From Lachnospiraceae bacterium (GTDB lineage: Bacteria > Bacillota > Clostridia > Lachnospirales > Lachnospiraceae): a stretch of DNA of 35,970 nt. Every line of letters starts with the position of its first letter. Within the stretch, counting starts at the first letter, position 1. The translations under genes were made by a program, and so were the position numbers. Of the stretch, positions 20,232 to 35,970 are shown piece by piece. The stretch covers positions 1-35,970 of the forward strand of contig JAETRI010000035.1 in assembly GCA_021770245.1 (NCBI GenBank), written 5' to 3'. The notes below the pieces were generated by a model. That model searched no databases, was not told the DNA's origin, and saw only the letters and a program-made list of their open reading frames with translations.

Positions 20232-20299
20232 AGTTTGAAACTGCGTTTCAAACTCCTTATTGGCGGCATATCGCAAGCTCCGCTTGCGATATGCAATGG
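20232..20299 (+). promoter_or_regulatory. Two-hairpin leader of leuB, divergent member of family 1
   Basis: AGTTTGAAA (20232-20240) pairs with TTTCAAACT (20246-20254). After CCTTATTGGCG a perfect 13-pair stem follows (20266-20278 with 20282-20294, three-base loop), then AATGGG. The order hairpin, CCTT-ATT spacer, hairpin, A/G-TGGG is the same as in family 1, with stems of different sequence. No T-box or leader peptide was recognised. The ATG of leuB is 41 bases further, after GCGAGG. Confidence 0.5.
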
Positions 20300-20335
20300 G
20301 TATAAAATAAAAAGAAGCGAGGTTGAAAACGGATT

Positions 20336-21418
20336 ATGGTATTACATATCGGATGTATTCCGGGCGACGGGATCGGCCCGGAGATCGTGAGGGAAACCCG
20401 GAAGGTTCTGGACCGGGTGGCGGAAAAGTATGGCCATGAAATAGCGTATACGGAAATCCTGCTGGGGGGCGCTTCCATCGATGTGCATGGCGTACCGCTG
20501 ACCCAGGAAGCCATAGAAGCCGCGAAAAAGAGCGACGCGGTACTGATGGGTTCCATCGGCGGCGATGCGGCCACCTCGCCCTGGTACCAGCTGCCGCCGG
20601 ATAAGCGTCCGGAAGCCGGACTCCTGGCCATCCGGAAGGCCCTGGGGCTGTTCGCGAACCTCCGGCCTGCGCTCCTCTATCAGGAACTGGCCGGAGCGTG
20701 TCCGCTGAAAGAGGAGATCAGCCGTGCGGGATTTGATATGCTGATCATGCGTGAGCTGACGGGCGGCCTGTATTTCGGGGAGCGTCGGACTACGGTGGAG
20801 AACGGATTGCGCACCGCCGTGGATACTCTCACTTATAATGAAGAAGAGATCCGGCGGATCGCGGTGAAGGCCTTTGATATCGCCAGGAAACGCAGGAATA
20901 AGGTGACCAGCGTGGATAAGGCAAACGTACTGGATTCTTCCAGGCTGTGGCGCGATGTGACAAGTCAGGTGGCACAGGAGTATCCGGATGTGGAACTTTC
21001 CCATATGCTGGTGGATAACTGTGCCATGCAGCTGGTGAAGGATCCGGCCCAGTTCGATGTCATCCTCACGGAGAACATGTTCGGGGACATCCTTTCCGAC
21101 GAAGCGAGCATGGTGACGGGGTCCATCGGAATGCTCGCCAGCGCCAGCCTGAACGATACGAAGTTCGGCCTGTATGAGCCCAGTCACGGCAGCGCGCCGG
21201 ATATCGCGGGGAAGGACATCGCCAATCCCATCGCGACCGTGCTCAGCGCATCCATGATGCTGCGCTACAGTTTTGACCTGGACCGGGAAGCGGATGCCGT
21301 GGAGGAAGCGGTTCAAAAGGTGTTGAGGGAAGGATACCGCACAGGAGATATTATGTCGGCAGGCTGCGTTCAGGTGGGTTGCACCGGGATGGGCGATTTG
21401 CTGGCGGAACGGATATAA
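20336..21418 (+). CDS. leuB: 3-Isopropylmalate dehydrogenase
   Basis: This NAD-dependent beta-decarboxylating dehydrogenase carries out the third step of leucine synthesis. In its 360 residues, [11 protein letters not shown] is the N-terminal motif, [13 protein letters not shown] (about 138-150) holds the catalytic Tyr, and TSVDKANVL holds the catalytic Lys. [16 protein letters not shown] has the metal-binding Asps, and [18 protein letters not shown] is the NAD-binding loop. The lack of leuA, leuC and leuD nearby is notable. The ribosome site is weak (GCGAGG, 13 bases away). It heads a run with ilvD (41 bases on) and ilvB. Confidence 0.97.
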
Positions 21419-21459
21419 GCGGGCTGTTTTCATAAAAAATAAGGTAGGAGGAAAAGGAC

Positions 21460-23124
21460 ATGAGAAGTGATTCCGTAAAAACAGGAGTACAGCAGGCTCC
21501 CCACAGAAGCCTGTTCAATGCGCTGGGCATTACCGAAGAGGAGAGGAAACGTCCCCTGATCGGAATTGTGAGTTCCTATAATGAGATCGTCCCGGGCCAT
21601 ATGAACCTGGATAAGATCGTGGAAGCCGTGAAGATGGGAGTGGCTATGGCGGGCGGGACGCCCATCGTGTTCCCTGCCATTGCGGTGTGCGACGGGATCG
21701 CCATGGGACACATCGGTATGAAATACTCCCTGGTTACAAGGGATCTGATCTGCGACAGTACGGAGTGCATGGCCACCGCTCATGGTTTCGACGGCCTGGT
21801 GATGGTACCCAACTGTGACAAGAACGTGCCGGGCCTTCTGATGGCTGCGGCCAGGGTGAACATTCCCACCATTTTCGTATCCGGCGGCCCCATGCTGGCC
21901 GGACACGTATGCGGCCATAAGACCAGCCTTTCGTCCATGTTCGAGGCGGTGGGAAGCGTGGCTGCGGGAACCATGAGCATGGAGCAGCTGGAAGAATTTG
22001 AAGAGAAGGCCTGCCCGACCTGCGGTTCCTGTTCCGGTATGTACACGGCCAATTCCATGAACTGCTTAACGGAGGCCCTGGGTATGGGCCTGCAAGGCAA
22101 CGGCACCATTCCGGCAGTCTATTCCGAACGGATCCGGCTGGCCAAGCATGCGGGCATGAAGATCATGGAGCTGGTGGAAAGGGACATTAAGCCCCGGGAT
22201 ATCATGACCGAAAAGGCATTCCTGAACGCGCTGACCATGGATATGGCCCTGGGCTGCTCCACCAATTCCATGCTGCACCTGCCGGCCATCGCCCATGAGG
22301 CAGGCGTAGAGCTGAACATGGAGATTGCGAACGAGCTTTCTGCCAAGACCCCGAATCTGTGTCACTTGGCTCCGGCAGGCCCTACCTATATGGAGGATCT
22401 CAACGAGGCCGGCGGGGTATATGCGGTAATGAACGAACTGAACAAGAAGAATCTGTTATATACCGACCTGATTACCGTATCGGGTAAGACGGTGGCGGAG
22501 AATATTGAGGGATGCATCAATAAAGACCTTTCGGTGATCCGTCCTGTGGAAAATCCCTATTCGCAGACGGGCGGGATCGCTGTGCTGAAGGGGAACCTGG
22601 CGCCGGAGACTGCGGTGGTGAAGCGTTCTGCCGTGGTTCCCGAGATGATGGTGCACGAAGGCCCGGCCAGGGTGTTTGACTGTGAAGAAGATGCCATTGA
22701 CGCGATCAAGGGTGGGAAGATCGTTCCCGGAGATGTGGTAGTGATCCGTTATGAAGGCCCGAAAGGGGGCCCGGGCATGCGGGAGATGCTCAATCCCACG
22801 TCCGCCATCGCGGGAATGGGAATGGGCTCCACGGTGGCCCTGATCACGGACGGCCGCTTCAGCGGCGCATCCAGGGGCGCATCCATCGGCCACGTCTGCC
22901 CGGAGGCGGCCCAGGGCGGCCCTATCGCCTTGGTGGAGGAGGGGGATATCATCAGCATCAATATCCCGGAAAACCGCCTGGATATGAAAGTGTCCGAAGA
23001 GGAACTGGAGAGAAGACGTGCAAACTGGCAGTCCAGGCAGCCCAGGGTGACCACCGGATATCTGGCCAGATATGAAAAGATGGTGACCAGTGCCAACAGA
23101 GGCGCCGTGCTGGAGATCAGATAA
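21460..23124 (+). CDS. ilvD: Dihydroxy-acid dehydratase
   Basis: This iron-sulfur dehydratase forms the 2-oxo acid precursors of valine, leucine and isoleucine. The 554 residues are full length. The cluster ligands are in NCDKNVPG and [19 protein letters not shown], the active-site region is [20 protein letters not shown], and [11 protein letters not shown] is a further signature. A strong GTAGGAGGAAAA ribosome site precedes the ATG. It works with ilvB downstream in the branched-chain pathway. Confidence 0.98.
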
Positions 23125-23156
23125 AAAGGTACCAAAAAAAAGCCTTTGGCGACGAT

Positions 23157-23186
23157 GCCGCCGGTGCGGCAGAAATGAGAGGGAAC
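23157..23186 (+). promoter_or_regulatory. Hairpin leader, family 2, copy before ilvB
   Basis: GCCGC (23157-23161) pairs with GCGGC (23166-23170), then AGAAATGAGAGGGAAC and the ATG at 23187. The internal ATG at 23175 is in frame, 12 bases upstream. Confidence 0.6.
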
Positions 23187-24869
23187 ATGCAGCTTACAGG
23201 AGCAGAAATCATTGTGGAATGTCTGAAAGAACAGGGCGTGGATACGGTGTTCGGCTATCCGGGAGGAACGATTCTGAACGTATACGATGCTCTGTACAAG
23301 CATCAGGATGAGATCTTCCATGTGCTTACCTCCCATGAGCAGGGGGCGGCGCATGCGGCGGATGGCTATGCCAGGGCCACCGGAAAGGTGGGGGTATGTA
23401 TGGCCACCAGCGGTCCGGGAGCCACAAACCTGGTGACAGGGATCGCCACTGCCTATATGGATTCGATCCCTGTGGTGGCGATCACCGCCAATGTGACCCT
23501 TCCCGCGCTGGGAAAGGATTCCTTTCAGGAGGTGGATATTGCGGGCGTGACCATGCCGATTACCAAGCACGGTTATATCGTCAAGGATATCAGTATCCTG
23601 GCAGATACCCTGCGCAGGGCATTTCAGATTGCGGTTTCCGGCCGGCCGGGCCCTGTCCTGGTGGATGTAACCAAGGACGTGACGGCAGCGGTATATGAAT
23701 ATACCCCGAAGACGCCGGAGCAGCCGGTTTATGAGAAAAAATATAATGCCCGGGAGCTGGAAGATGCTTTGGAACTGCTGGACAAGGCGGAAAAGCCGTT
23801 TATCTTCGTTGGCGGCGGTGCGATTCTCTCCGGTGCGGCAAAGCAGGTGAAGGAGTTTGCCGCCAGACTGAACGCGCCGGTCTGCGATTCCCTGATGGGG
23901 AAGGGGGCATTCGACGGAAATCATCCGCTATACACAGGCATGATCGGTATGCATGGGACGAAGACCTCTAATTTAGGGGTGAGCGAATGCGATCTCCTGG
24001 TGGCCCTGGGAGCCCGGTTTTCCGACCGCGTGGTGGGCAACGCGAAAAAATTCGCTGCTCAAGCCAAGATTTTGCATATCGATATCGATGCGGCCGAGAT
24101 CAATAAGAACATCAGGGCCGACGTGGCCCTGGTGGGCGACCTGAAAGACGTGCTGGAAGACATTAACGAAAGGCTTGCACAGAAGTCACATCCTGAATGG
24201 ACGAAGCATATTATTGAAATGAAAAAACGCTATCCGCTCTCTTATGACGGGCAAAATCTGAGCTGCCCCTATGTGATTCAGGAGCTGGACCGGATCACGG
24301 AAGGGCAGGCAGTGGTTACGACGGATGTGGGACAGCATCAGATGTGGGCGGCCCAGTACTACCATTACACCGCCCCCCGTACTTTCCTCTCTTCCGGAGG
24401 GCTGGGAACGATGGGATACGGGCTGGGCGCGTGTATCGGGGCCAAAATGGGAAGGCCGGATAAGATCTGTGTGAACATCGCCGGAGACGGATGCTTCCGT
24501 ATGAATATGAACGAACTGGCTACGGCCAGCCGCTATCACATCCCGATCATCCAGATCGTGATGAATAACCATGTGCTCGGCATGGTGCGCCAGTGGCAGA
24601 CCCTGTTCTATGATCACAGATATTCTCAAACCGTGCTGGCGGATAAAGTGGATTTCTGTAGGGTGGCGGAAGGGCTGGGCTGCATGGCTATTCGGGTTAC
24701 CAGGAAGGAAGAGGTGGCCCCGGCCATTGAGAAAGCCATTGCGGCCTCCGCCCCGGTGCTGATCGAGTGCGTGATCTGTGAAGATGACAAGGTCTTTCCC
24801 ATGGTATCGCCCGGAGCCGCCATCGATGAAGTGTTTGACGGCGACGATCTGGCAGGAAGGCAGGCATAG
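23187..24869 (+). CDS. ilvB: Acetolactate synthase, large subunit
   Basis: This thiamine-diphosphate enzyme condenses pyruvate to acetolactate, or with 2-oxobutyrate to acetohydroxybutyrate. In its 560 residues Glu51 in SHEQGAAHAADGYARATG activates the cofactor, SGPGATNLVTGIATAY and KDSFQEVD are family signatures, and GDGCFRMNMNELATASRY is the ThDP/magnesium motif. The start at 23187 has GAGAGGG upstream; ATG 23175 is an in-frame alternative. The regulatory subunit gene ilvN, often next, is absent here, so the small subunit must be elsewhere or lacking. Confidence 0.97.
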   Translation: MQLTGAEIIVECLKEQGVDTVFGYPGGTILNVYDALYKHQDEIFHVLTSHEQGAAHAADGYARATGKVGVCMATSGPGATNLVTGIATAYMDSIPVVAITANVTLPALGKDSFQEVDIAGVTMPITKHGYIVKDISILADTLRRAFQIAVSGRPGPVLVDVTKDVTAAVYEYTPKTPEQPVYEKKYNARELEDALELLDKAEKPFIFVGGGAILSGAAKQVKEFAARLNAPVCDSLMGKGAFDGNHPLYTGMIGMHGTKTSNLGVSECDLLVALGARFSDRVVGNAKKFAAQAKILHIDIDAAEINKNIRADVALVGDLKDVLEDINERLAQKSHPEWTKHIIEMKKRYPLSYDGQNLSCPYVIQELDRITEGQAVVTTDVGQHQMWAAQYYHYTAPRTFLSSGGLGTMGYGLGACIGAKMGRPDKICVNIAGDGCFRMNMNELATASRYHIPIIQIVMNNHVLGMVRQWQTLFYDHRYSQTVLADKVDFCRVAEGLGCMAIRVTRKEEVAPAIEKAIAASAPVLIECVICEDDKVFPMVSPGAAIDEVFDGDDLAGRQA

Positions 24870-24913
24870 CCGGAAAAGGAAAACCGCCGCGGTTCTCAGA
24901 ATGTCTCCTGGCA

Positions 24914-24956
24914 GGGCATGCTGCAGGGGCCTTAAAGCGGTTCCTGCGGCATGCCC
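24914..24956 (+). terminator. Hairpin after ilvB
   Basis: GGGCATGCTGCAGG (24914-24927) pairs with CCTGCGGCATGCCC (24943-24956), 14 positions with one G-T and a 15-base loop. The tail is CGCGGAAATTT, so it is either a weak terminator or an mRNA 3' stabiliser. Confidence 0.5.
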
Positions 24957-24976
24957 GCGGAAATTTAACAGGGTAG

Positions 24977-25005
24977 TTGACTAAAGTGCCCGGAATGTGT
25001 AGAAT
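24977..25005 (+). promoter_or_regulatory. Promoter of serC-serA
   Basis: TTGACT (24977-24982) and TAGAAT (25000-25005) are spaced by 17 bases, 52 bases before the serC start. Confidence 0.75.
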
Positions 25006-25026
25006 AGACGATGTGTAAAAAAAGAA

Positions 25027-25056
25027 TGCCGAATAAGCGGCAGGATGGGAGGAAAT
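25027..25056 (+). promoter_or_regulatory. Hairpin leader, family 2, copy before serC
   Basis: TGCCG (25027-25031) pairs with CGGCA (25038-25042), then GGATGGGAGGAAAT and the GTG start at 25057. The internal ATG (25045) is in frame 12 bases upstream and overlaps the ribosome site, so it is unlikely to be the start. Confidence 0.55.
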
Positions 25057-26139
25057 GTGGCTAGAGTATATAATTTTTCAGCAGGGCCTGCTGTATTACC
25101 CGAAGAGGTACTGCGGGAAGCGGCGGAAGAGATGCTGGACTATCGCGGCAGCGGGATGTCCGTTATGGAAATGAGCCATCGCTCCAAGACCTACCAGGGC
25201 ATCCTGGATGAGGCGGAAGCCGATCTGCGGGCGCTGGTGGGGATTCCGGAGGATTACAGCGTGCTTTTCCTGCAGGGAGGGGCGAGCCAGCAGTTTGCCA
25301 TGATCCCCATGAACCTGATGAAAAACCGGGTGGCGGATTATATCGTAACAGGGCAGTGGGCGAAGAAGGCCTGGCAGGAAGCCTCTAAATACGGAAAGGC
25401 CAATAAGATCGCTTCTTCCGAGGACCGGACCTTTTCGTACATACCCGACTGCAGCGACCTTCCCGTTTCCGCGGATGCGGACTATGTATATATTTGTGAA
25501 AACAATACGATTTACGGAACGAAGTTCAAGACATTGCCCAACACCAAGGGAAAGACGCTGGTGGCGGACGTGTCCTCCTGCTTCCTTTCCGAACCGGTGG
25601 ATATCACCAAATACGGTGTGATGTATGGCGGCGTGCAGAAGAACATCGGGCCTGCGGGCGTGGTGATCGTTATCATCCGTAAGGATCTGATCACGGAGGA
25701 TGTACTTCCCGCCACGCCCACCATGCTCCGCTATAAGATCCATGCGGATGCGGGCTCCCTTTACAATACGCCTCCGGCCTACGGAATCTATATCTGTGGA
25801 AAGGTTTTCAAATGGATCAGGAAAATGGGCGGCCTTTCCGCTATGAAGGAGCATAACGAGAAGAAAGCGGCGATTCTGTACGATTATCTGGATGAGAGCA
25901 GGCTGTTTCGGGGAACCGTGCGCAGACAGGACCGCTCCCTGATGAACGTACCCTTCGTCACAGGCAGCGAAGAGCTGGATGCCGCCTTTGTCAAGGCCGC
26001 GAAGGAAGCGGGATTTGAGAACCTGAAAGGACACAGGAGCGTGGGCGGGATGCGGGCCAGCATCTATAACGCGATGCCTTTGGAAGGCGTGGAAAAGCTG
26101 GTGGATTTTATGAAGGAATTTGAAGCGCAGAATTTGTGA
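25057..26139 (+). CDS. serC: Phosphoserine aminotransferase
   Basis: This PLP aminotransferase forms phosphoserine from phosphohydroxypyruvate. In its 360 residues, RVYNFSAGPAVLPEEVL is the typical N-terminus, QGGASQQFAMIPMN binds phosphate and cofactor, and Lys195 in GGVQKNIGPAG holds PLP. HRSVGGMRASIYNA is the C-terminal signature. A GTG start at 25057 is chosen because GGGAGGA lies four bases upstream. serA follows 31 bases later, the next enzyme in the same pathway. No serB gene is visible. Confidence 0.97.
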   Translation: MARVYNFSAGPAVLPEEVLREAAEEMLDYRGSGMSVMEMSHRSKTYQGILDEAEADLRALVGIPEDYSVLFLQGGASQQFAMIPMNLMKNRVADYIVTGQWAKKAWQEASKYGKANKIASSEDRTFSYIPDCSDLPVSADADYVYICENNTIYGTKFKTLPNTKGKTLVADVSSCFLSEPVDITKYGVMYGGVQKNIGPAGVVIVIIRKDLITEDVLPATPTMLRYKIHADAGSLYNTPPAYGIYICGKVFKWIRKMGGLSAMKEHNEKKAAILYDYLDESRLFRGTVRRQDRSLMNVPFVTGSEELDAAFVKAAKEAGFENLKGHRSVGGMRASIYNAMPLEGVEKLVDFMKEFEAQNL

Positions 26140-26170
26140 ATCGCCAAGGAAGCGGACGAGGAGCGAGGTT

Positions 26171-27334
26171 ATGTTTAAATATCTATGTTTGAATCCGATC
26201 TCCAAAGTGGGATTGAAGGGCTTTACGCAGGAGTACGAAAAGACGGAAGCAATCGACGAGGCGGACGGCGTTCTGGTACGGAGCGCCTCCATGCACGATA
26301 TGGAGCTTCCCGAAAACCTGCTGGCCGTAGCCAGGGCAGGAGCGGGTGTGAACAATATTCCGCTGGAGGAGTGTGCCTCCAGGGGGATCGTGGTTTTCAA
26401 TACGCCCGGAGCAAATGCCAACGGCGTCAAGGAAATGGTAATCGCGGGCATGCTGCTGGCGAGCCGGGATATTGTGGGCGGCATCCAATGGGTGAAGGAA
26501 AACTGCGGCATGCCCGACATCGGGAAAGCGGCGGAGAAAGCCAAAAAGAATTTCGCAGGAACGGAAATCGGAGGCAAGAAGCTGGGCGTTATCGGCCTGG
26601 GAGCCATCGGCGTCAAGGTGGCAAACACGGCCGTAAATATGGGCATGGAGGTCTTTGGATACGATCCCTTTGTGTCCGTGGCCGCTGCCTGGAATTTAAG
26701 CCGCCATGTGAAGCACGTGCTCAATGTGGATGAGATCTATTCGGAGTGCGATATTATCACCATTCATGTACCGCTGATGGATTCCACTAGGGGGATGGTG
26801 AGCAAAGCGGCAATCGGGAAAATGAAGGACGGCGTGATCCTTCTGAACTTTGCCAGGGATCCTCTCGTGGACGAACAGGCCGTCCTGAAGGCGATCGAGG
26901 AAGGGAAGATCCGCAGATATGTGACGGATTTTGCGAATCCCACGGTGGCGGGCCGGGAAGGCTGCATCGTTCTGCCCCATCTGGGCGCGTCCACGGAGGA
27001 ATCCGAGGATAACTGCGCCGTTATGGCGGTACAGGAACTGATAGATTATCTGGAGAACGGAAATATCAAGAACAGCGTGAACTTCCCCGCCTGTGATATG
27101 GGAGTCTGCAGCCAGGCGGGCAGGATATCCATCGTCCATAAGAATGTGGCGAATATGATCACGAAATTTACCGCCCTTTTCGGCGATATGGGAATCAATA
27201 TTTCGGATATGACCAACAAGTCTAAGGGTGAGGTGGCCTACACCATGATGGATGTGGAAGAACGGCCCCGGGAAGAAATCATAGAAAAGCTCCGGCATAT
27301 CCCGGGCGTGTTCCGGGTACGTGTCATAAAATAA
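26171..27334 (+). CDS. serA: Phosphoglycerate dehydrogenase with ACT domain
   Basis: This NAD-dependent first step of serine synthesis has 387 residues. The Rossmann motif is GLGAIG (142-147), Arg229 lies in NFARDP and His270 in LPHLGAST. An ACT domain (about 317-387) suggests feedback by serine. The catalytic Glu that other SerA proteins carry in DVFxxEP is not in its usual place; here the region reads VTDFANP (251-257). The same VTDF form is familiar from clostridial SerA (recalled, not checked). The ATG at 26171 follows GAGGAGCGAGG; an in-frame ATG at 26120 lies within the end of serC and is rejected. Confidence 0.95.
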   Translation: MFKYLCLNPISKVGLKGFTQEYEKTEAIDEADGVLVRSASMHDMELPENLLAVARAGAGVNNIPLEECASRGIVVFNTPGANANGVKEMVIAGMLLASRDIVGGIQWVKENCGMPDIGKAAEKAKKNFAGTEIGGKKLGVIGLGAIGVKVANTAVNMGMEVFGYDPFVSVAAAWNLSRHVKHVLNVDEIYSECDIITIHVPLMDSTRGMVSKAAIGKMKDGVILLNFARDPLVDEQAVLKAIEEGKIRRYVTDFANPTVAGREGCIVLPHLGASTEESEDNCAVMAVQELIDYLENGNIKNSVNFPACDMGVCSQAGRISIVHKNVANMITKFTALFGDMGINISDMTNKSKGEVAYTMMDVEERPREEIIEKLRHIPGVFRVRVIK

Positions 27335-27350
27335 TGCGAAATAAAGAAAG

Positions 27351-27376
27351 GGCAGGCGGAAGAGCCTGCCTTTTTT
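27351..27376 (+). terminator. Intrinsic terminator after serA
   Basis: GGCAGGC (27351-27357) pairs with GCCTGCC (27364-27370) and is followed by six T, 16 bases after the serA stop. It separates serC-serA from the DUF1015 gene. Confidence 0.9.
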
Positions 27377-27402
27377 GGATGGCCCCTTCTGTGGTCATCA
27401 CA

Positions 27403-27465
27403 CGCCGCGGGGCCGGGCAGGGGGCCGCAGAGGCCTCGGAGCCGTTCGTGCGTTTGTCCTGGTTT
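27403..27465. repeat. Degenerate fragment of the palindromic repeat
   Basis: This GC-rich stretch ends in CGTTCGTGCGTTTGTCCTGG, matching the right arm of the palindromes at 19172 and 32363 except for a few changes. The left arm is not recognisable. Confidence 0.45.
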
Positions 27466-27480
27466 GCCCCGGGATTAGGA

Positions 27481-27509
27481 TTGACAGCATTGCGGCCGGA
27501 ATGTATACT
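27481..27509 (+). promoter_or_regulatory. Promoter of the DUF1015 gene
   Basis: TTGACA (27481-27486) and TATACT (27504-27509) are 17 bases apart. The leader that follows is about 170 bases and ends in a family 2 hairpin. Confidence 0.75.
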
Positions 27510-28959: not shown

Positions 28960-28984
28960 GCATATAAAAGAAAGGGGAAAGGGT

Positions 28985-31420
28985 ATGAAAGAAAAGCTGT
29001 ACAAGCTGATGAACTGGCCGGAGATCGAGGCAGTGATCTATTCGGAGGAGGATAACCCGCATAAGCTTCTCGGACCCCACGCGGCGGGCAACTCTACCCT
29101 GTTCCAGGTCTTTATGCCGGGAGCACAGAAGGTGGCTCTGCTTTTAAAAGAGACGGGGAAGACGGTTGAAATGGAGCTGGCGGACGAAGCCGGTTATTTT
29201 GCCGCCCTCATCCCGGGAAAGGAAGTGCCGGATTACGTCTATCGCGTTACCTGGCCGGAGGGAGAGGAAGAGGAGGTGGGAGATCCCTATCGTTTCGCTC
29301 CCGTCATAACGGAAAAGGATACGGAGCTGTTTGCTGCGGGAATCCATTATGAAGCCTACCGGATGCTCGGCGCCCACGTGTGCAGTGTGGACGGAGTGAA
29401 GGGCGTGCATTTCGCGGTCTGGGCCCCCAATGCCCTGCGGGTAAGCGTGGTGGGCGATTTCAACCGTTGGGACGGACGCGTACATCAGATGCGCAGGCTG
29501 TGGGATTCCGGCATTTTCGAGCTCTTTATCCCCGGAGAGCTGGAAGGGCAGAATTATAAATACGAACTGAAGACAAAGGGAGGCCTTACTTACCTCAAGG
29601 CGGACCCCTATGCTTTCGGCCAGCAGCTGCGGCCGGAGACGGCTTCGGTCATCCGGGATATTTCGGGATTTCAATGGGAAGACGGGGAATGGCTGGAAAA
29701 ACGGGAAAAAGCGGATTATACCTGTGAGCCCGTAAACGTATATGAACTCTATCTGGGTTCCTTTATGCGTCCGCAGGACGGGAGGCCTTATTGCAATTAT
29801 CGGGAACTGGCCCCCGCCGTCGCCGCTTATGTGAAGGAGATGGGGTATACCCATATCGAGCTCATGCCCGTGATGGAGCATCCCTTTGACGGTTCCTGGG
29901 GTTACCAGGTGATCGGTTATTATGCGCCCACGGCCAGATATGGGACGCCGGAGGACTTTATGTTTTTCATAAATGAAATGCATAAGGCCGGAATCGGCGT
30001 GATCCTGGACTGGGTGCCCGCCCATTTTCCCAGGGACGTTCAGGGACTTTCCGCCTTTGACGGGACATGCCTGTATGAGCACCTGGATCCGCGCCAGGGA
30101 AGCCATCCCCATTGGGGTACGCTGATCTATAACTACGGCAGGCCGCAGGTATCCAACTATCTGATCGCCAACGCCCTGTTCTGGATCGAGCGTTACCACG
30201 CGGACGGCATCCGTATGGATGCGGTGGCTTCCATGCTGTATCTGGATTACGGGAAGCAGGACGGGGAATGGGTGGCCAATATCTATGGCGGCAACCAGAA
30301 TCTGGAGGCTATAGAATTTCTGAAGCACGTGAACAGCATGATCCATAAGCGGAATAAGGGGGTCCTTTCCATCGCGGAGGAATCCACCGCATGGCCCATG
30401 GTGACGGGAAGCCTGGAAGAAGGCGGCCTCGGCTTTGATATGAAGTGGAACATGGGATGGATGAACGATTTCCTGGGCTATATCAGGCAGGATCCCTATT
30501 TCCGTTCCGGCTGCCATAATGCGCTTACCTTCAGCATGATCTATGCTTACAGCGAACAGTTTATGCTGGTGCTCTCCCATGACGAGGTGGTGCACGGGAA
30601 AGCTTCCATGATCGGGAAGATGCCGGGCAGCAGGGAGGAGCAGTTCGCCAACTTAAAGGCCAGCTATGGCTATATGATGTGCCATCCGGGCAAAAAGCTC
30701 CTTTTCATGGGACAGGAGATCGGGGAATACGACGAGTGGAACGAAGAGCGCGAGGTAGAGTGGAACCTTACGGAGTATGCGGAGCATAAGGGGCTGCAGG
30801 AATTCGTCAAGACATTGAACCACCTCTATCGGGAACAGCCGGCCCTTTATCTGAAGGACACCAGCTGGGACGGTTTTGAGTGGATCGACTGCATCAGCGC
30901 CAACGACTGCGCCATCACCTTTGTGCGTAAGACGGGGAAAACGGAAGAAATGCTCCTGGTGATCTTAAATTTCGCCAATGTGGAACGGGAAAACCATCAG
31001 GTCGGCGTGCCCTTTGACGGGAAATATAAGGAAATTCTGAATTCGGACGAAGTGCGCTTCGGCGGACAGGGCAGAGTGAATCCCAGGGTCAAGACGGCGC
31101 GGAAGGAAACCTGGGACGGCAGGGATTATTCCATTAAGATCATGCAGGCGCCCCTTAGCGTGAGTATTTTCTCCTATCAGCCTTATACAAAGGAGGAACT
31201 GAAGGAAATCGCCAGGAAACAGGCGGAGAAGGAAAAGAAGGCGAAAGAAGCCGCCAGGAAGAAAAAAGGGAAAACGGCCGAAAAGAAAAAGACGGCGCCC
31301 AAAACCCTGAAGGAGGAACTGGCCAATAAGGTGTTTGAGACGGATGCCCTGATCTCGGAAAAAGGGGAATATGAGAAACCCGTAAAGGTGGTAAAGAAAC
31401 CCAAAAGGACGGCAGAATGA
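28985..31420 (+). CDS. glgB: 1,4-alpha-glucan branching enzyme with a Lys-rich tail
   Basis: This GH13 enzyme makes alpha-1,6 branches in glycogen. The 811 residues hold an N-terminal beta domain (about 15-105), a CBM48-type domain with VWAPNALRVSVVGDFNRWDG (about 145-165) and the catalytic barrel. Barrel motifs are DWVPAHFP, DGIRMDAV (nucleophile Asp near 411), IAEESTAWP (acid near 465) and LSHDEVVHGK. A normal GlgB ends near residue 735. Here some 75 more residues follow, very rich in Lys, Ala and Glu, ending KKPKRTAE. The start has AAAGGGGAAAGGG upstream. The stop overlaps the next start (ATGA). No other glg genes are in the window. Confidence 0.95.
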   Translation: MKEKLYKLMNWPEIEAVIYSEEDNPHKLLGPHAAGNSTLFQVFMPGAQKVALLLKETGKTVEMELADEAGYFAALIPGKEVPDYVYRVTWPEGEEEEVGDPYRFAPVITEKDTELFAAGIHYEAYRMLGAHVCSVDGVKGVHFAVWAPNALRVSVVGDFNRWDGRVHQMRRLWDSGIFELFIPGELEGQNYKYELKTKGGLTYLKADPYAFGQQLRPETASVIRDISGFQWEDGEWLEKREKADYTCEPVNVYELYLGSFMRPQDGRPYCNYRELAPAVAAYVKEMGYTHIELMPVMEHPFDGSWGYQVIGYYAPTARYGTPEDFMFFINEMHKAGIGVILDWVPAHFPRDVQGLSAFDGTCLYEHLDPRQGSHPHWGTLIYNYGRPQVSNYLIANALFWIERYHADGIRMDAVASMLYLDYGKQDGEWVANIYGGNQNLEAIEFLKHVNSMIHKRNKGVLSIAEESTAWPMVTGSLEEGGLGFDMKWNMGWMNDFLGYIRQDPYFRSGCHNALTFSMIYAYSEQFMLVLSHDEVVHGKASMIGKMPGSREEQFANLKASYGYMMCHPGKKLLFMGQEIGEYDEWNEEREVEWNLTEYAEHKGLQEFVKTLNHLYREQPALYLKDTSWDGFEWIDCISANDCAITFVRKTGKTEEMLLVILNFANVERENHQVGVPFDGKYKEILNSDEVRFGGQGRVNPRVKTARKETWDGRDYSIKIMQAPLSVSIFSYQPYTKEELKEIARKQAEKEKKAKEAARKKKGKTAEKKKTAPKTLKEELANKVFETDALISEKGEYEKPVKVVKKPKRTAE

Positions 31421-32331
31421 AGGGACTGGAACATTTTCTTGCCCGTCCGGCGGTTTGGGCCCTGGCCGGGGATGCGACGCAGCCTCAGGAACTGTTCCTG
31501 GGGGAACGGCTTTTGCGGGCTGCGCCCAAGTCCCTGATGGATCTGCTCATCCGGGTTGTGTTTTGCGTGGCCTTTTTCCTGATCGGAGCCAGAGTGATCG
31601 CTCTTCTGCGCAGACTCACCCGGAACGCATTGTCCAGGGCCAATGCCAGCCAGGAGGTGAAGCAGTTTCTGGATTCGGCAGTGAAGGTGGGTCTGTATGC
31701 GTTCCTGATCTTCCAGATCGCCATCCGCATGGGAATTGACGCCGCCACCATCGCCACTGTGCTCGGCACGGCCACGGCCACGGTGGGCCTCGCTTTCCAG
31801 GGCAGCCTGAAAAACTGTATCGGCGGGATCATGATCATGATTCTGCATCCGTTCCGGGTGGGGGATTATATCGTGGAATCCGCTTTTGGAAACGAGGGTT
31901 CCGTAACGGAGATCACGATTTTTTATACCAGGCTTGCCACGGTGGACAATAAGATCATCCTGCTGCCCAACGGCCCTCTGGCGGATGCCAGCATTACGAA
32001 TGTGACCAATGAGGACTGCCGCAGGCTGGAGCTGAAGGTAGGGATCTCCTATCGAGCGGATATCCGACAGGCAAAGGCCGTGCTGGAGGGGCTGATCCTG
32101 CAGGAAGAACGGGTCCGCAGAGATAAAGAATATCTGATCTATGTGGATGAACTGGCAGGCAGCAGCGTGGTGCTGGGAACGCGCTTTTGGACGGGTACCG
32201 GGGACTACTGGCCGGTGAAATGGGATATGCTGGAGGCAATCAAATATGCCTTTGACGAAAACGGAATAGAAATCCCTTATCCTCAGATGGATATTCATAT
32301 GAGAGCGGAGGAAACGAAGGACATATCCTAA
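31417..32331 (+). CDS. MscS-family mechanosensitive ion channel
   Basis: This small-conductance mechanosensitive channel opens under membrane tension to release solutes. In its 304 residues the membrane spans lie at about 41-60, 88-108 and 112-138. The pore helix has Ala/Gly packing (ATVLGTATATVGLAFQGSLKN), followed by MIMILHPFRVGDYI and the beta domain with ITIFYTRLATVDNKIILLPNGPL. The start overlaps the glgB stop by four bases (ATGA), so translation is likely coupled. Whether the pairing has meaning for glycogen or osmotic balance is unknown. Confidence 0.94.
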   Translation: MKGLEHFLARPAVWALAGDATQPQELFLGERLLRAAPKSLMDLLIRVVFCVAFFLIGARVIALLRRLTRNALSRANASQEVKQFLDSAVKVGLYAFLIFQIAIRMGIDAATIATVLGTATATVGLAFQGSLKNCIGGIMIMILHPFRVGDYIVESAFGNEGSVTEITIFYTRLATVDNKIILLPNGPLADASITNVTNEDCRRLELKVGISYRADIRQAKAVLEGLILQEERVRRDKEYLIYVDELAGSSVVLGTRFWTGTGDYWPVKWDMLEAIKYAFDENGIEIPYPQMDIHMRAEETKDIS

Positions 32332-32362
32332 CGTACGCTCCGGCCCGGAAAGTGGACGGCCA

Positions 32363-32437
32363 GGACAAACGCATGAATGGCCCTGCGGCCCCCGCACCAT
32401 CCCTGCCCGGCCCGCAGGGCCATTCATGCGTTTGTCC
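32363..32437. repeat. 75-bp palindromic repeat, copy 2
   Basis: Bases 32363-32388 are the exact reverse complement of 32412-32437 (26 pairs) around a 23-base loop. Arms and loop are nearly the same as those at 19172-19244. It lies 31 bases after the MscS gene and could also act as a terminator. Confidence 0.9.
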
Positions 32438-32521
32438 CGGCGTCCGGGAGCCTGCGGGGTGGATGAACCGTTACGTGAGCATAAAAGCATAAAAGAAAAG
32501 CATAAAATAAAAAATTACCCC

Positions 32522-32550
32522 TTGCCAAAAGGGGAATTTGATATTATAAT
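32522..32550 (+). promoter_or_regulatory. Promoter of tRNA-Thr
   Basis: TTGCCA (32522-32527) and a consensus TATAAT (32545-32550) are 17 bases apart. The -35 box lies in an inverted repeat (CCCCTT / AAGGGG), much as in the tRNA-Leu promoter. Confidence 0.8.
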
Positions 32551-32568
32551 ACATCTTGTCGGTAAAAT

Positions 32569-32641
32569 GCTGGAATAGCGCAGTCGGTAGCGCAACTGAT
32601 TCGTAATCAGTAGGTCGAGGGTTCGAGTCCCTTTTCCAGCT
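32569..32641 (+). tRNA. tRNA-Thr (anticodon CGT)
   Basis: A 73-base cloverleaf. The acceptor GCTGGAA pairs with TTCCAGC, then discriminator T. The D arm is GCGCAGTCGGTAGCGC, the anticodon stem-loop ACTGATTCGTAATCAGT gives CGT, and the T loop is GGTTCGAGTCC. The CCA end is not encoded. Confidence 0.95.
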
Positions 32642-32654
32642 TTATATTGATAGA

Positions 32655-32684
32655 AACCATGATCTGTGCGGGTCATGGTTTTTT
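32655..32684 (+). terminator. Intrinsic terminator after tRNA-Thr
   Basis: AACCATGA (32655-32662) pairs with TCATGGTT (32673-32680) and is followed by TTTT, giving six T in all. Confidence 0.85.
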
Positions 32685-32748
32685 GCTGTATTACGCCGTT
32701 TTCCCCAGGATCGTTCATGCGTTTATCCTGCGCCCGGCGGGAAAAGAG

Positions 32749-32778
32749 TTGGCAGACAGGAGGGGGATATGGTATAAT
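32749..32778 (+). promoter_or_regulatory. Extended -10 promoter upstream of the REC/HD-GYP/GGDEF gene
   Basis: TTGGCA (32749-32754), an 18-base spacer and TGG-TATAAT (-10 at 32773-32778). The same TGGTATAAT occurs again at 32848-32856 in the duplicated unit, there without a clear -35. Confidence 0.65.
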
Positions 32779-32924
32779 GTCGCCAGACATGATACTGGCC
32801 CGTAGCGAAGCGGAGTGGCCATCCCGCTAAGCGCCATGCCGCAGGCATGGTATAATGTCGCCAGACATGATACCGGCCCGCAGCGAAACGGAGTGGCCAT
32901 CCCGATAAACGCCGGATGGCGAAA
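32769..32924 (+). repeat. Tandem duplication with a 78-base period carrying promoter boxes and a 17-codon frame
   Basis: The unit starting ATGGTATAATGTCGCCAGAC at 32769 recurs at 32847 with few changes over about 67 bases. Each copy has TGGTATAAT and, starting in the last bases of that box, an open frame of 17 codons: MSPDMILARSEAEWPSR (32777-32830) and MSPDMIPARSETEWPSR (32855-32908), both ending in TAA. Two of four differences in the frame are silent. Short hairpins (ATGTC / GACAT, CCATGCC / GGCATGG) lie in the unit. Confidence 0.75.
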
Positions 32925-32964
32925 AGGATTTTGCAGTACGGAAGTAATTAAGGAAGTGATGGTT

Positions 32965-35040
32965 ATGAAACGAGAGAAGCATAAGATTCTGATAGCAGAC
33001 GATTCCGAGATGAACCGTTCCATCCTGGCGGATATGCTTGGCGATGAGTATGAAATCATCGAGGCGGAGAACGGGGTGGAGGCGATCGGATGCTTTCAGC
33101 AGATGGGATCGGAAATTTCCCTTGTTCTTTTGGATATTGTCATGCCGGAGATGGACGGGTTTGGGGTCCTGGAAATGATGAACAAGTATCATTGGATCGA
33201 AGATATCCCGGTCATCATGATTTCCGCAGAGAATACGGCTGCTTATGTGGAGCGCGCCTATGAACTGGGCGTTACGGATTATATCAGCCGGCCCTTTGAC
33301 GATCTGGTGGTACACCGCCGCGTCATTAATACGATCATGCTGTACGCCAAGCAGAAGAAGCTGATCGGGATGGTGGCCGACCAGCTGTATGAAAAGCAGA
33401 AAAGCAACAACTTAATGATCTCCATCCTGAGCCACATTGTGGAATTCCGGAACGGGGAAAGCGGACTGCATGTGTTTCATATCCATACGCTTACGGATCT
33501 GCTGCTGCGGCATTTGACCCAGATGACAGACCGGTACAATCTTTCTCAGGAGGATATCTCCACCATCACCATGGCGTCCGCCCTGCACGATGTGGGGAAG
33601 ATCGCTATCCCGGAAGAAATCCTGAATAAGCCCGGCAGGCTGACCAAGGAAGAATTTGAGGTGATAAAGACCCATACGGAAATCGGAGCAACCATGCTGG
33701 AACAGATCCCCTTTAACGGCGACAGCGGACTGCTCAAAGTCGCTCACGAAATCTGCCGCTGGCATCATGAGCGGTATGACGGCAGCGGCTATCCGGACGG
33801 GTTGAAGGGAGACGAAATCCCGATTTCCGCCCAGATCGTTGCACTGGCGGATGTGTACGATGCCCTGACCAGTGAACGGGTGTACAAGGCGGCTTATTCC
33901 CATGAGACCACTGTCCGGATGATCACCAATGGGGAATGCGGCGTCTTCAATCCGCTGCTCCTTCAATGCCTGCTGGAAGCCTCCGACAGCATTCAGGAAG
34001 AGCTGCAGGCGGATTATATGGATGCAGACAACAGAGCCGAGCTGCATAATATAGCCATGGAGATGACACGGAAGGAGGAACTTTCCGCATCGGACCGGAC
34101 CCTGATGCTCCTGGAACATGAACGGATTAAATATCAGTTTTTTGCGTCCATCTCCGAGGAAATTCAGTTTGAATATACGGTGGATCCTTCCATGGTCATC
34201 CTGTCGAGCTGGGGGGCTGCAAAGCTGGGGCTAAAGGAAACCATTATGGATCCTTTCCACGATGAACAGTTCATGGCGCTGGCGGATGAGAGCACCTGGA
34301 AGGATCTGGTGGAAAAGCTGAGAAATACCACGCCGGAAGATCCGATCATCAAGGAGGAATATAAAGTCCGGGTGGGCGGAGAAGAACGCTGGCACCGCGT
34401 GATCTGCCGGGCCACCTGGATGATTGGGGACGAGGAACCGGTCTATCTGGGCACGATCGGGAAGGCGGTGGATATCCATCAGGAGCGGCTGCAGCTCATG
34501 GATCTGGAGAAGGCGGCCTCCCATGATGCATTAACCGGCCTGATGAATCATGCCTATGCAAAGAAGCATATCCGCGAGCGGATGGCGGAAGGGATAGAAA
34601 ACGAATACGCCCTGTTCGTCCTGGATCTGGACTACTTCAAATCCGCCAATGACCAGAGGGGACATTCCTTTGGGGATCATGTGCTGCAGTATATGGCGGA
34701 AAAACTGAAAGAAAGCATCCGCAGCGGGGATCTGGCGGCCAGGATCGGAGGAGACGAATTCCTGATCTTCCTGGAATATAATACGGGCCTGGAGGCGCTG
34801 GTAAACCGGATCTATCATTCCCTTCTGGGCGAATATGAGGGATTCCGTATCTCCATCAGCATGGGCGTTGCCAGAGGGAATGCATCGATCACAGATTATG
34901 ATACCCTGTTCCACTGTGCGGATCAGGCGCTCTATGCGGCGAAAAGGGCCGGGCGCGGCCGGTATTGTTTTTATGATGAATCCATGAGAGATATGCTGTC
35001 CGTCCTTTCTCCCATTGAAGGGGAGCGGACGAGAAGATGA
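32965..35040 (+). CDS. Response regulator with HD-GYP, PAS-like and GGDEF domains
   Basis: This 691-residue cyclic-di-GMP protein starts with a receiver domain (1-125) having Asp57 in LLDIVMPEMDG; the usual Lys of the KPF motif is Arg109 (SRPF). An HD-GYP phosphodiesterase (about 150-345) has HDVGK (208-212), HHERYDGSGYPDGL (GYP at 275-277) and LADVYDALTS. A PAS-like segment (about 390-510) and a GGDEF cyclase (about 515-680) follow, with intact GGDEF (595-599) and an inhibitory RxxD site (586-589). Both synthesis and breakdown motifs are complete. The start at 32965 has AAGGAAG eight bases upstream; longer in-frame forms run into the duplicated leader. An Hpt gene follows. Confidence 0.93.
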   Translation: MKREKHKILIADDSEMNRSILADMLGDEYEIIEAENGVEAIGCFQQMGSEISLVLLDIVMPEMDGFGVLEMMNKYHWIEDIPVIMISAENTAAYVERAYELGVTDYISRPFDDLVVHRRVINTIMLYAKQKKLIGMVADQLYEKQKSNNLMISILSHIVEFRNGESGLHVFHIHTLTDLLLRHLTQMTDRYNLSQEDISTITMASALHDVGKIAIPEEILNKPGRLTKEEFEVIKTHTEIGATMLEQIPFNGDSGLLKVAHEICRWHHERYDGSGYPDGLKGDEIPISAQIVALADVYDALTSERVYKAAYSHETTVRMITNGECGVFNPLLLQCLLEASDSIQEELQADYMDADNRAELHNIAMEMTRKEELSASDRTLMLLEHERIKYQFFASISEEIQFEYTVDPSMVILSSWGAAKLGLKETIMDPFHDEQFMALADESTWKDLVEKLRNTTPEDPIIKEEYKVRVGGEERWHRVICRATWMIGDEEPVYLGTIGKAVDIHQERLQLMDLEKAASHDALTGLMNHAYAKKHIRERMAEGIENEYALFVLDLDYFKSANDQRGHSFGDHVLQYMAEKLKESIRSGDLAARIGGDEFLIFLEYNTGLEALVNRIYHSLLGEYEGFRISISMGVARGNASITDYDTLFHCADQALYAAKRAGRGRYCFYDESMRDMLSVLSPIEGERTRR

Positions 35041-35059
35041 GAGGATGCCGGGCAGAGGA

Positions 35060-35111
35060 AGATACTATTATCTGATTTGAGGGCGTGCTTTGCACGCAGA
35101 TGGGAGCAAGA
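35060..35111 (+). promoter_or_regulatory. Hairpin leader, family 1, copy before the Hpt gene
   Basis: AGATA (35060-35064) pairs with TATCT (35069-35073), then GATTTGAG, a second hairpin GCGTGC (35083-35088) with GCACGC (35092-35097) around TTT, then AGATGGGAGCAAGA and the ATG. The second hairpin matches the array at 35824-35970. Confidence 0.65.
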
Positions 35112-35462
35112 ATGACGGTAAAAGAATGTTATGCGGCTATGGGCGGAGACTATGAAGGAATGCTGGGCCGGTTCCGCAGTGAAGACCGGATTGTCAGATT
35201 TTTGGGCAAGTTCCTGAACGACAAAACTTTTGACACTCTGTGTGCGGCACTGGAGGCCGGAAATCAGGAGGAGGCCTTCCGAGGGGCGCATACCCTAAAA
35301 GGCGTCGCGCAGAATCTGAGCATGACCCGCCTCTACCTTTCCAGCGAAAAGCTGACGGAACATCTGCGGGCGGGATCCTGCCAAGGATCGGAGGAGCTTA
35401 TGGCCCAGGTGGATGCGGATTACCATGAGGCCGTTTCGGCGGTTCGCTCTTTGGACGCATGA
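35112..35462 (+). CDS. Histidine phosphotransfer (Hpt) domain protein
   Basis: This 116-residue, all-helical Hpt domain passes phosphate between His and Asp in phosphorelays. His60 in GAHTLKGVAQNLSM is the phosphorylated residue. No other domain is present. It lies 71 bases after the REC/HD-GYP/GGDEF gene, whose receiver is a likely partner. An in-frame GTG at 35085 lies inside the leader hairpin; the ATG at 35112 with GGGAG upstream is preferred. Confidence 0.9.
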   Translation: MTVKECYAAMGGDYEGMLGRFRSEDRIVRFLGKFLNDKTFDTLCAALEAGNQEEAFRGAHTLKGVAQNLSMTRLYLSSEKLTEHLRAGSCQGSEELMAQVDADYHEAVSAVRSLDA

Positions 35463-35470
35463 AAAACCCT

Positions 35471-35496
35471 CCTTTGTATCATAATAGATACAAAGG
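35471..35496. terminator. Perfect hairpin between the Hpt gene and the small ORF
   Basis: CCTTTGTATC (35471-35480) is the exact complement of GATACAAAGG (35487-35496), loop ATAATA. On the plus strand it has no T tract and abuts the GGAAGGTGGAG ribosome site of the next gene. Read on the minus strand it is followed by AGGGTTTTT. Confidence 0.5.
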
Positions 35497-35508
35497 AAGG
35501 TGGAGCGG

Positions 35509-35751
35509 ATGTTTACATTAGGATTGGTGGAATACCTCACATTAAAAATGGGATGCGAATACCCTTCGGATCTCCATTACGTCAGTGACAGGGAAAAAAT
35601 CTGCAGAATTGTAAATGAAATACCGACAGGACAGTGTACTCGCAGGGAATGGCAGGATGCAGCGCAGTATCTCGCGGACGTGACGGATTGTAAAACGGCC
35701 GCGTCTGCCCGTGCGGCCGTGCTGGCATGGGCCGGCGGGAAGTACGAATAA
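35509..35751 (+). CDS. Small protein of unknown function, 80 residues
   Basis: MFTLGLVEYLTLKMGCEYPSD opens a soluble, mainly helical protein with two Cys (CEY, QCT) and a third near the end (TDCKTAASARAAVLAWAGG). I recognise no family. A good ribosome site (GGAAGGTGGAG) precedes the ATG, codon use resembles that of the neighbours, and the gene follows the Hpt gene on the same strand. A 3-codon GTG extension is possible. Confidence 0.65.
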   Translation: MFTLGLVEYLTLKMGCEYPSDLHYVSDREKICRIVNEIPTGQCTRREWQDAAQYLADVTDCKTAASARAAVLAWAGGKYE

Positions 35752-35802
35752 GGGACGCAGGTTTGTCGGTACGGGGGATGTAGGAAAAGAAAACAAACAG
35801 GA

Positions 35803-35970
35803 ATCAGTGCACAGATGGGAGCCAAGGTTGAAAGAAGAACACTTTCAACCTCCTTGATTTGAGTGCGTGCTTTGCACGCAGGTGGGAGCAAGGCTGAAAG
35901 AAGAACACTTTCAGCCTCCCTGATTTGAGTGCGTGCTTTGCACGCAGGTGGGAGCAAGGCTGAAAGAAGA
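35803..35970 (+). repeat. Tandem array of family 1 hairpin leaders, 66-base period
   Basis: After a partial tail (ACAGATGGGAGCC, 35811-35823), complete units begin at 35824 and 35890, and a third starts at 35956 and is cut by the window end. Each unit has hairpin 1 (GGTTGAAAG / CTTTCAACC in unit 1, GGCTGAAAG / CTTTCAGCC in unit 2, a paired change), the TCCTTGATTTGA-type spacer, hairpin 2 (TGCGTGC / GCACGCA, loop TTT) and GGTGGGAGC. No start codon follows the ribosome-site-like GGGAG within units, so the array continues to the right. Confidence 0.9.

What the first reader, a model, noticed from the sequence alone, without database searches (positions are those of the whole stretch)
20232..35970. 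A recurring two-hairpin leader (family 1) directly in front of unrelated genes
Copies precede hisF (1821), the lipoprotein gene (12125), leuB (20232, degenerate) and hpt (35060), with an array at 35803-35970. The order is kept: variable hairpin, CCTTGATT-like spacer, second hairpin, then GCAGRTGGGAGCAAG with GGGAG serving as ribosome site. Stem sequences differ while pairing is mostly kept. The genes have no shared pathway. This looks like a mobile RNA or DNA module that supplies a ribosome site, or a translational control element. I do not recognise it as a described riboswitch.
Basis: partly seen in the sequence, partly recalled or inferred. Interest (0 to 1): 0.7.

Follow-up and report, generated by a model that had tools for sequence, protein, structure and literature searches.

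The report
Mobile hairpins donating ribosome sites
In two related bacteria, a small double-hairpin DNA repeat is present in a hundred copies or more each, mostly slipped in between a gene's ribosome-binding site and its start codon, where it seems to supply a new ribosome-binding site of its own.

Summary
The own genome holds at least 150 copies; one sister species also has over 100, the 11 other species searched in the genus 0-11. Unit of ~66 nt: hairpin H1, CTCCYTGATTTG linker, GC-rich hairpin H2, AGATGGGAGCAAR; single or in tandem arrays. Of 116 array-terminal copies, 91 have a start codon 1-3 nt downstream (random 4.7%); GGAG-to-start spacing is 5-6 nt in 78 of 94. Where H1 is intact, another Shine-Dalgarno-like tetramer lies within 14 nt upstream in 48 of 60 (random 22%). 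At 7 orthologous loci, 16 of 17 outgroup starts have no unit. Both stems covary. Rfam has no match.

Best reading: a non-autonomous mobile repeat that enters the Shine-Dalgarno/start gap, donates a replacement Shine-Dalgarno and, by folding, masks the displaced one with its CTCC linker. The mover is unknown: no Y1 transposase in either carrier, no reverse transcriptase in one. Corrections: the leuB copy belongs to a sister family, hisF lacks the linker, and the 3' array is a contig break.

The parts
1822..1836 (+). first hairpin of the hisF leader (GCGGGACCTGTCCGC), not of the H1 type and without the CCTTGATT linker
1854..1881 (+). family-1 H2 hairpin plus tail GATGGGAGCAAG of hisF; GGGAG 1873-1877, hisF ATG 1884
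   Evidence: plain Shine-Dalgarno at the same place in G010, G002, G012, G001, G004
12113..12124 (+). displaced (old) Shine-Dalgarno-like stretch GACGAGAGGAAG in front of the lipoprotein-gene copy
   Evidence: general rule
12125..12149 (+). H1 hairpin GATTGAAAAT..ATTTTCAATC
12150..12192 (+). linker TCCTTGATTTCAG, H2 (12163-12179), tail with GGGAG 12183-12187; lipoprotein gene ATG 12193
20233..20307 (+). sister family (family 2) unit before leuB: H1 GTTTGAAAC..GTTTCAAAC, linker TCCTTATTGGCGGCA, H2 TATCGCAAGC..GCTTGCGATA, tail TGCAATGGGTATAAAA; leuB ATG 20336
35060..35110 (+). copy before a 116-aa Hpt-domain gene: weak first hairpin 35060-35073, TGATTTGAGG, H2 35083-35097, GGGAG 35102-35106, ATG 35112
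   Evidence: Hpt domain
35806..35825 (+). 5'-most tail of the terminal array (AGTGCACAGATGGGAGCCAA)
35826..35891 (+). array unit 1: H1 35826-35850, H2 35864-35880, GGGAG 35884-35888
35892..35957 (+). array unit 2: H1 35892-35916 (GGCTGAAAG..CTTTCAGCC, a compensated variant), H2 35930-35946, GGGAG 35950-35954
35958..35970 (+). start of unit 3, cut by the contig end; a matching array stands at the end of contig C151

Best explanation
It is a family of small non-autonomous mobile repeats ('Shine-Dalgarno donors'). A unit of about 66 nt, H1 - CTCCYTGATTTG - H2 - AGATGGGAGCAAR, enters the gap between a gene's Shine-Dalgarno (SD) and its start codon. Its own tail GGGAGCAAR then lies 5-6 nt before the start and acts as the new SD. 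The old SD, now just upstream of H1, can pair with the unit's CTCC across H1, so the displaced site is masked and the new one is used. The tail looks like the target (SD plus about 5 nt), so a unit can be re-entered or duplicated head to tail, giving arrays. SHOWN by sequence: copy number, placement, orthologous sites without a unit, arrays, stem covariation, SD-like flanks. INFERRED: that the tail is the SD in use, that the old SD is masked (folding only), that movement is an active process, and the mover, for which no candidate was found.
For: 150 own-genome copies, all 150 scored candidates being hits; 34 array-internal, 98 followed by a start codon within 30 nt (random positions 36.7%), 91 of 116 array-terminal copies at 1-3 nt against 4.7% of 20,000 random positions and 2 of 116 on the opposite strand at the other end. 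Replicate in sister species G011, not used for the model: 91 copies, 32 internal, 47 before starts, 34 of these at 1-3 nt. GGAG-to-start spacing 5-6 nt in 78 of 94. SD-like tetramer within 14 nt of H1 in 48 of 60 first units with H1, peaked at -7/-6, against 11 of 60 in the stretch from -25 to -12 and 22% of 3,000 random 14-mers; G011 14 of 14, mostly tails of preceding units. Orthologous starts were found for 18 of 100 loci. With the model, a unit lies within 200 nt upstream in G011 at 9 of 17 loci and in outgroups G010, G002, G012 at none of 17 locus-genome pairs (7 loci) with E below 1, one pair having a weak match of E 3.6. Stem pairing above shuffles: H2 95.0% against at most 91.6% in 500, H1 8.16 of 9 against at most 7.35 in 200. 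Linker pairs with the old rather than the new SD in 37 of 40 terminal copies with H1 and an SD-like flank. 132 of 150 copies sit before starts or inside arrays, which argues for targeting.
Against: No mover: PF01797 Y1 transposase 0 in both carriers, PF00078 reverse transcriptase 3 in G000 but 0 in G011, PF07282 one weak hit in G000 and 0 in G011. 5' ends vary: of 116 first units 60 have H1, 32 have a linker but no H1, 24 neither, so a fixed left end is not shown. No target-site duplication was demonstrated. 9 of 53 first units with H1 have no SD-like flank. Array units resemble each other more (0.93, 8 pairs) than units of different loci (0.74, 553 pairs), so arrays may grow by local duplication rather than re-entry. 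In the small alignment the number of pairs with two-sided changes (2) and of pair types (11) is no more than shuffles give (218 and 262 of 500 reach it). Linker and tail do not covary. The new SD is not more open than ordinary ones (paired 0.58 against 0.45 for 9 native genes). 18 of 116 terminal copies have no start within 30 nt. leuB's sister-family copy lies upstream of an SD, not between it and the start. With a strict hairpin rule only 1 of 21 window genes has a hairpin just before the SD, 0.6 expected. Near C222:4434 G011 has a unit 228 nt upstream rather than none.
Confidence: 0.62

Rival explanations
1. Spread by recombination, not by a transposition enzyme: leaders are copied from gene to gene by microhomology or gene conversion between SD motifs, and arrays arise by slippage. 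The hairpins are hitchhikers or help template switching.
For: No Y1 transposase in the two carriers and no reverse transcriptase in G011; units are bounded by SD-like sequence on both sides; variable 5' ends; arrays homogeneous within a locus; G000 and G011 carry different unit families at the same place before leuB.
Against: At least nine-fold difference in copy number between species of one genus suggests an active spreading element; the same recombination should also copy ordinary leaders (inference).
Confidence: 0.22
2. A cis-regulatory RNA (translational switch or protein-binding leader) shared by a large regulon: CTCC pairs alternately with the upstream and downstream GGGAG, hiding or freeing the ribosome site.
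For: Structure kept with compensated changes; fixed distance to the start; CTCCC can pair with either GGGAG; the new SD is somewhat more paired than in 9 native genes.
Against: No Pfam family is shared among 17 distinct downstream proteins scanned; predicted pairing of the linker with the new SD is 0.05-0.13 in all but the largest arrays, where it is lower still; linker and tail do not covary; many copies lack H1 or linker; orthologous genes lack it.
Confidence: 0.1
3. A REP/REPIN or IS200/IS605-type element: hairpins recognised as single strands by a Y1 transposase, CTCC acting as guide and GGGAG as cleavage and target site; the transposase has since been lost or lies in an assembly gap.
For: Guide - hairpin - cleavage-site geometry resembles IS200/IS605 ends, where guides lie 5' of the palindrome and choose the cleavage site by complementarity (PMC8266576, passages); Y1 transposases occur in G010, G002, G012 and G001 of the genus.
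Against: No Y1 domain in either amplified genome, 96% and 97% complete; no GTAG tag among the conserved positions; in two species examined in print REPs lie close to 3' ends of genes (PMC3733652, passages).
Confidence: 0.06

Closest known systems
REP / REPIN palindromic repeats with Y1 (RAYT) transposases
   Same: short, hairpin-forming, high copy number, non-autonomous
   Different: no GTAG tag and no Y1 transposase in the carriers; anchored on the gene strand at start codons and carrying a ribosome site, whereas REPs are described as mostly intergenic and, in two species, close to 3' ends of upstream genes, some lying at annotated 5' ends of genes (PMC3733652, passages)
TAACTGA direct repeats of Beggiatoaceae (PMC4679880)
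   Same: tandem repeats immediately upstream of start codons in gene orientation, proposed translational role
   Different: those are 7-nt repeats with little SD character, and only about 10% of the intergenic regions with repeats include an SD; here the unit is a double hairpin that brings an SD (passages)
Double-hairpin elements of fungal mitochondrial DNA
   Same: two hairpins as a mobile unit (recalled; one search gave a search listing only)
   Different: organellar, not recalled as tied to start codons or ribosome sites
MITEs and other small Firmicute repeats (BOX, RUP, bcr; recalled)
   Same: small palindromic repeats between genes
   Different: no transposon-type terminal inverted repeats or target duplication seen here; placement set to 1-3 nt before the start codon

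Membership tests
REP/REPIN (RAYT-mobilised) | Y1 (PF01797) transposase in the genome | tested here: not met
   0 hits in G000 and G011; hits in G010, G002, G012, G001, of 9 genomes searched. The two drafts are 96% and 97% complete
REP/REPIN (RAYT-mobilised) | GTAG (or CGTC) tetranucleotide at the hairpin foot | tested here: not met
   conserved positions are CTCC(C/T)TGATTTG and AGATGGGAGCAAR
REP/REPIN (RAYT-mobilised) | hairpin repeat in high copy number | tested here: met
   at least 150 copies
IS200/IS605-derived element | guide sequence 5' of the hairpin complementary to the cleavage/target site | tested here: inconclusive
   CTCC lies 5' of H2 and is complementary to GGGAG, but linker and tail do not covary and cleavage cannot be tested
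Known Rfam RNA family or riboswitch | match to a covariance model | tested here: not met
   window: only two tRNAs and the end of an rRNA over gathering score; 8 loci, 56,015 bases, E up to 1: two weak matches, neither overlapping a module
TAACTGA-type start-codon repeats | repeats adjacent to start codons in gene orientation | tested here: met
   91 of 116 terminal copies at 1-3 nt
TAACTGA-type start-codon repeats | TAACTGA heptamers without SD | tested here: not met
   66-nt double hairpin with GGGAG
MITE of a DDE transposon | terminal inverted repeats and target-site duplication | tested here: inconclusive
   no terminal inverted repeat seen by eye; filled and empty sites too diverged to read duplications

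The most novel reading that the evidence does not exclude
A mobile element whose insertion target is the translation initiation region itself: it homes to the SD, inserts between SD and start codon, neutralises the host's SD with an internal anti-SD and substitutes its own, so that insertion just in front of essential genes is harmless and the whole translatome becomes safe landing ground. Several hairpin+SD families of different sequence in the same genus would then be separate lines of one strategy, moved by an enzyme or RNA process not yet known.
Probability: 0.35. Interest if true: 0.88.

Novelty: new variant of a known kind. Interest (0 to 1): 0.74.

Why it matters
Small bacterial repeats usually sit between genes, where they do little harm (general knowledge). 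Here a repeat lives right at translation starts, and seems able to because it carries a replacement ribosome site. That would be a new way for selfish DNA to be tolerated, would make the 5' leaders of about a hundred genes in one genome imports, and would give a natural experiment on how much the sequence upstream of a start codon matters. It also offers a set of portable hairpin+SD parts for expression work in clostridia, and it points to an unidentified mobilising activity.

Tried and rejected
A known riboswitch or Rfam RNA was rejected. A shared regulon was not supported: 63 downstream genes with complete frames were listed, of the 91 with a start at 1-3 nt; I scanned 17 distinct proteins behind family-1 copies with Pfam, 16 have a family and none is shared, the lipoprotein gene having none (one search also held leuB with its family-2 unit, two neighbours without a family-1 unit and one duplicate). 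A coding origin was rejected: unit spacings of 49, 60, 63-67, 71 and 143 nt keep no frame. An SD/anti-SD switch acting on the new SD was tried by folding and not supported. A Y1 transposase, a reverse transcriptase and TnpB common to both carriers were sought and not found. A generic count of stem-6 hairpins just upstream of SDs gave 40 of 221 genes in the G011 stretches (chosen because they hold copies, so biased) against 3.9 in shuffles; G000 window 1 of 21 (0.6), G010 2 of 32 (0.8), G002 1 of 36 (0.4), G012 2 of 43 (1.6), G008 1 of 6 (0), G004 0 of 6. Literature searches listed no description of this repeat; I saw listings and abstract starts, in 42, 66, 67 and 68 only part of the papers found, so this is a statement about those lists only.

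Rows dropped before counts: of 117 model hits in G011 stretches I used the 91 best-scoring (bits 33.5 and above). For H2 pairing 144 of 150 copies (46 or 47 nt long), for H1 118 with a recognisable linker. For orthologs, 18 of 100 loci had one in the sequence held. By model, G011 has a unit within 200 nt upstream at 9 of 17 (two of them weak, E about 0.01) and none at 8; of these 8 one (the lipoprotein gene) has a degenerate unit by eye, one (C20:13457) a different hairpin leader by eye, and one (C222:4434) a unit 228 nt upstream. In the outgroups 16 of 17 locus-genome pairs have no match up to E 10; G002 cmk has a weak one (E 3.6) right before the start, perhaps a decayed unit, and G012 cmk a similar tail (for hisF in G012 the model was run on L153 and L164, which should hold the same stretch as the L175). 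The script's label 'native-looking' (32 flanks) includes several that are tails of other module families, so I give no count of native SDs.

Full report
WHAT IS THERE. The unit is H1 (for example GGTTGAAAG..CTTTCAACC), a linker CTCC(C/T)TGATTTG, a GC-rich hairpin H2 (TGCGTGC..GCACGCA and variants) and AGATGGGAGCAAR. A search of the own genome (4.28 Mb draft, 237 contigs) gives 88 places with at most one mismatch to the tail and none for the reversed pattern. A covariance model built from 33 copies gives 150 hits, the weakest at E 8.6e-4; 150 of 2355 candidates were scored and all 150 were hits, so the number is a lower bound. They form 116 clusters: 89 single units, 21 doubles, 5 triples and one quadruple; of 34 unit spacings 18 are 66 nt and 7 are 67 nt.

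PLACEMENT. Of 150 copies 34 are array-internal. Of the 116 array-terminal ones 98 have a start codon with an open frame within 30 nt (88 ATG), 91 of them at 1-3 nt; 18 have none. Random positions give 36.7% within 30 nt and 4.7% at 1-3 nt (20,000 positions in G011 stretches); the opposite strand at the other end gives 2 of 116 at 1-3 nt. The spacer between GGAG and the start codon is 5 or 6 nt in 78 of 94. The sister species G011, which played no part in building the model, behaves alike: 91 copies used of 117 found, 32 internal, 47 before starts (34 at 1-3 nt, 5 at 0), 12 neither.

THE OTHER SIDE. Of 60 first units with an intact H1, 48 have an SD-like tetramer in the 14 nt before H1, sharply peaked 6-7 nt upstream; the stretch from -25 to -12 gives 11 of 60 and random 14-mers 22%. 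Some flanks are plain gene SDs (for example CAGGAGGAAAAG or AAGGAGAAAAG), others are tails of further hairpin modules (GGGTATAAG, GAGAGGAAG); in a stricter second pass 9 of 53 had no SD-like flank. So a unit with H1 usually sits between an older SD and the start codon and ends in a new SD.

EMPTY SITES. In hisF, G000 and G011 carry units; G010, G002, G012, G001 and G004 have a plain SD; G008 carries a different hairpin+RBS module, twice. Of 100 loci, 18 have an ortholog in the relatives' sequence held. The model finds a unit within 200 nt upstream in G011 at 9 of 17 and none at 8. One of the 8 is ispH (LytB family), where G011 runs from the upstream gene's stop straight into ATG while G000 has one and a half units; another is C187:13980, where G011 has CAGGAGGTAGCGT-ATG and G000 CAGGAGGAAAAG-unit-ATG. 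Of the 8, the lipoprotein gene has a degenerate unit by eye and C222:4434 has a unit 228 nt further up. In G010, G002 and G012, 16 of 17 locus-genome pairs (7 loci) have no match up to E 10; the exception is G002 cmk at E 3.6. Conversely G011 has hairpin leaders of sister families where G000 has none (genes at window 9288 and 28985).

DISTRIBUTION. Of 61 genomes searched with the model at E up to 1e-4, 9 have hits. G000 and G011 each reach the scoring limit of 101; the 11 other species of the genus have 0-11; two other genera have 1 and 3. Exact tail matches: G000 69, G011 111, the other species of the genus 0-6, control 0. The low-copy species have genuine units: all six places fetched from G010 have an ATG 0-2 nt downstream, and two of three loci from G002 have one at 1-3 nt, one of them a tandem (by eye). 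Matches in G024, G031 and one of two in G012 look like chance. The family is therefore older than the pair and has burst in one pair of species.

STRUCTURE. H2 arms pair at 95.0% of cells against a shuffled maximum of 91.6% (144 copies, 500 shuffles); with identical arms counted once (41), 87.5% against 86.1%. H1 reaches 8.16 of 9 pairs against a shuffled maximum of 7.35 (118 copies, 200 shuffles), with up to five standard pair types per position among the 30 of 61 distinct stems pairing at 8 or 9. Against this, in the first small alignment only 2 pairs have two-sided changes, which 218 of 500 shuffles reach, although the covariation score itself exceeds all 500. The CTCC-GGGAG helix around H2 shows no two-sided change and linker and tail do not covary.

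HOW IT MAY WORK. Folding 40 terminal units with H1 and an SD-like flank, the CTCC linker pairs with the old SD at mean probability 0.49 and with the new SD at 0.05, and prefers the old one in 37 of 40; over all 65 such units the means are 0.44 and 0.11. This suggests that the unit masks the displaced site and offers its own. It is a prediction: the new SD is not more open overall than in 9 native genes (about 0.58 against 0.45 paired; 0.92 in the 5 triple arrays). Array units are more alike within a locus (0.93, 8 pairs) than between loci (0.74), so arrays probably grow locally. First units vary at the 5' end (60 with H1, 32 with linker only, 24 with neither), from erosion, truncation or a non-transpositional copying process.

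THE MOVER. Among 9 genomes searched, Y1 transposase (PF01797) is absent from both amplified genomes and present in four congeners. Reverse transcriptase (PF00078) has 3 hits in G000 and none in G011. TnpB (PF07282) is weak in G000 and absent from G011. No candidate remains among these three families; a recombinational spread is the main rival.

COMPARISON. Rfam has no match at modules. REP elements have GTAG or CGTC tags, lie mostly between genes, and in two species close to 3' ends of genes (PMC3733652, passages); they use Y1 enzymes, and IS200/IS605 elements choose their sites with guide sequences (PMC8266576, passages). TAACTGA repeats of Beggiatoaceae sit at start codons but have little SD character (PMC4679880, passages). 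A survey of stem-loop families in bacteria has no occurrence of 'start codon', 'ribosome', 'translation start' or 'Shine' (PMC2267715, word search). I file this as a new variant of small mobile palindromic repeats; the SD-gap placement with SD donation is the new part.

Noticed in passing
window 4671, 19223, 27437, 32415, 32706: Another dispersed palindrome (CAGGGCCATTCATGCGTTTGTCCTG), forming long inverted repeats at 19164-19247 and 32359-32441; also seen in the own genome just upstream of copy C20:13457.
   Followed up: no
window 328-347 and 19481-19500: A further hairpin+ribosome-site module, GGCGGCAGAATGAGAGGAAA; window 306-353 has many short matches in G011, and hairpins with similar tails precede starts there.
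   Followed up: partly
L160 (G008), hisF leader: A species with no family-1 model hit has a different hairpin+RBS module (GCTGTCCTGCGGACAGCGGAAACAGAGG) twice in front of hisF: same grammar, different sequence.
   Followed up: no
own genome, loci C13:2793, C59:1471, C61:106725: Family 3 modules: TTACGGATTTGGGCCTATTCCCGTTTTGGG.., elsewhere seen ending in a GGGTATAAGA tail, chained with family-1 units.
   Followed up: no
window 32769-32913: Tandem repeat with 78-nt spacing containing GGTATAAT, a possible duplicated promoter, also tandem in G011.
   Followed up: no
window 35970 and own-genome contigs C151, C63, C91: These contig ends lie inside or next to unit arrays, so the repeats may fragment assemblies of this species.
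   Followed up: partly
G002 and G012 cmk leaders (L256, L255): The tail GATAGGAGCARA stands before cmk in two outgroups, in G002 with a weak, perhaps decayed hairpin (E 3.6): a possible old unit or source of the tail.
   Followed up: partly
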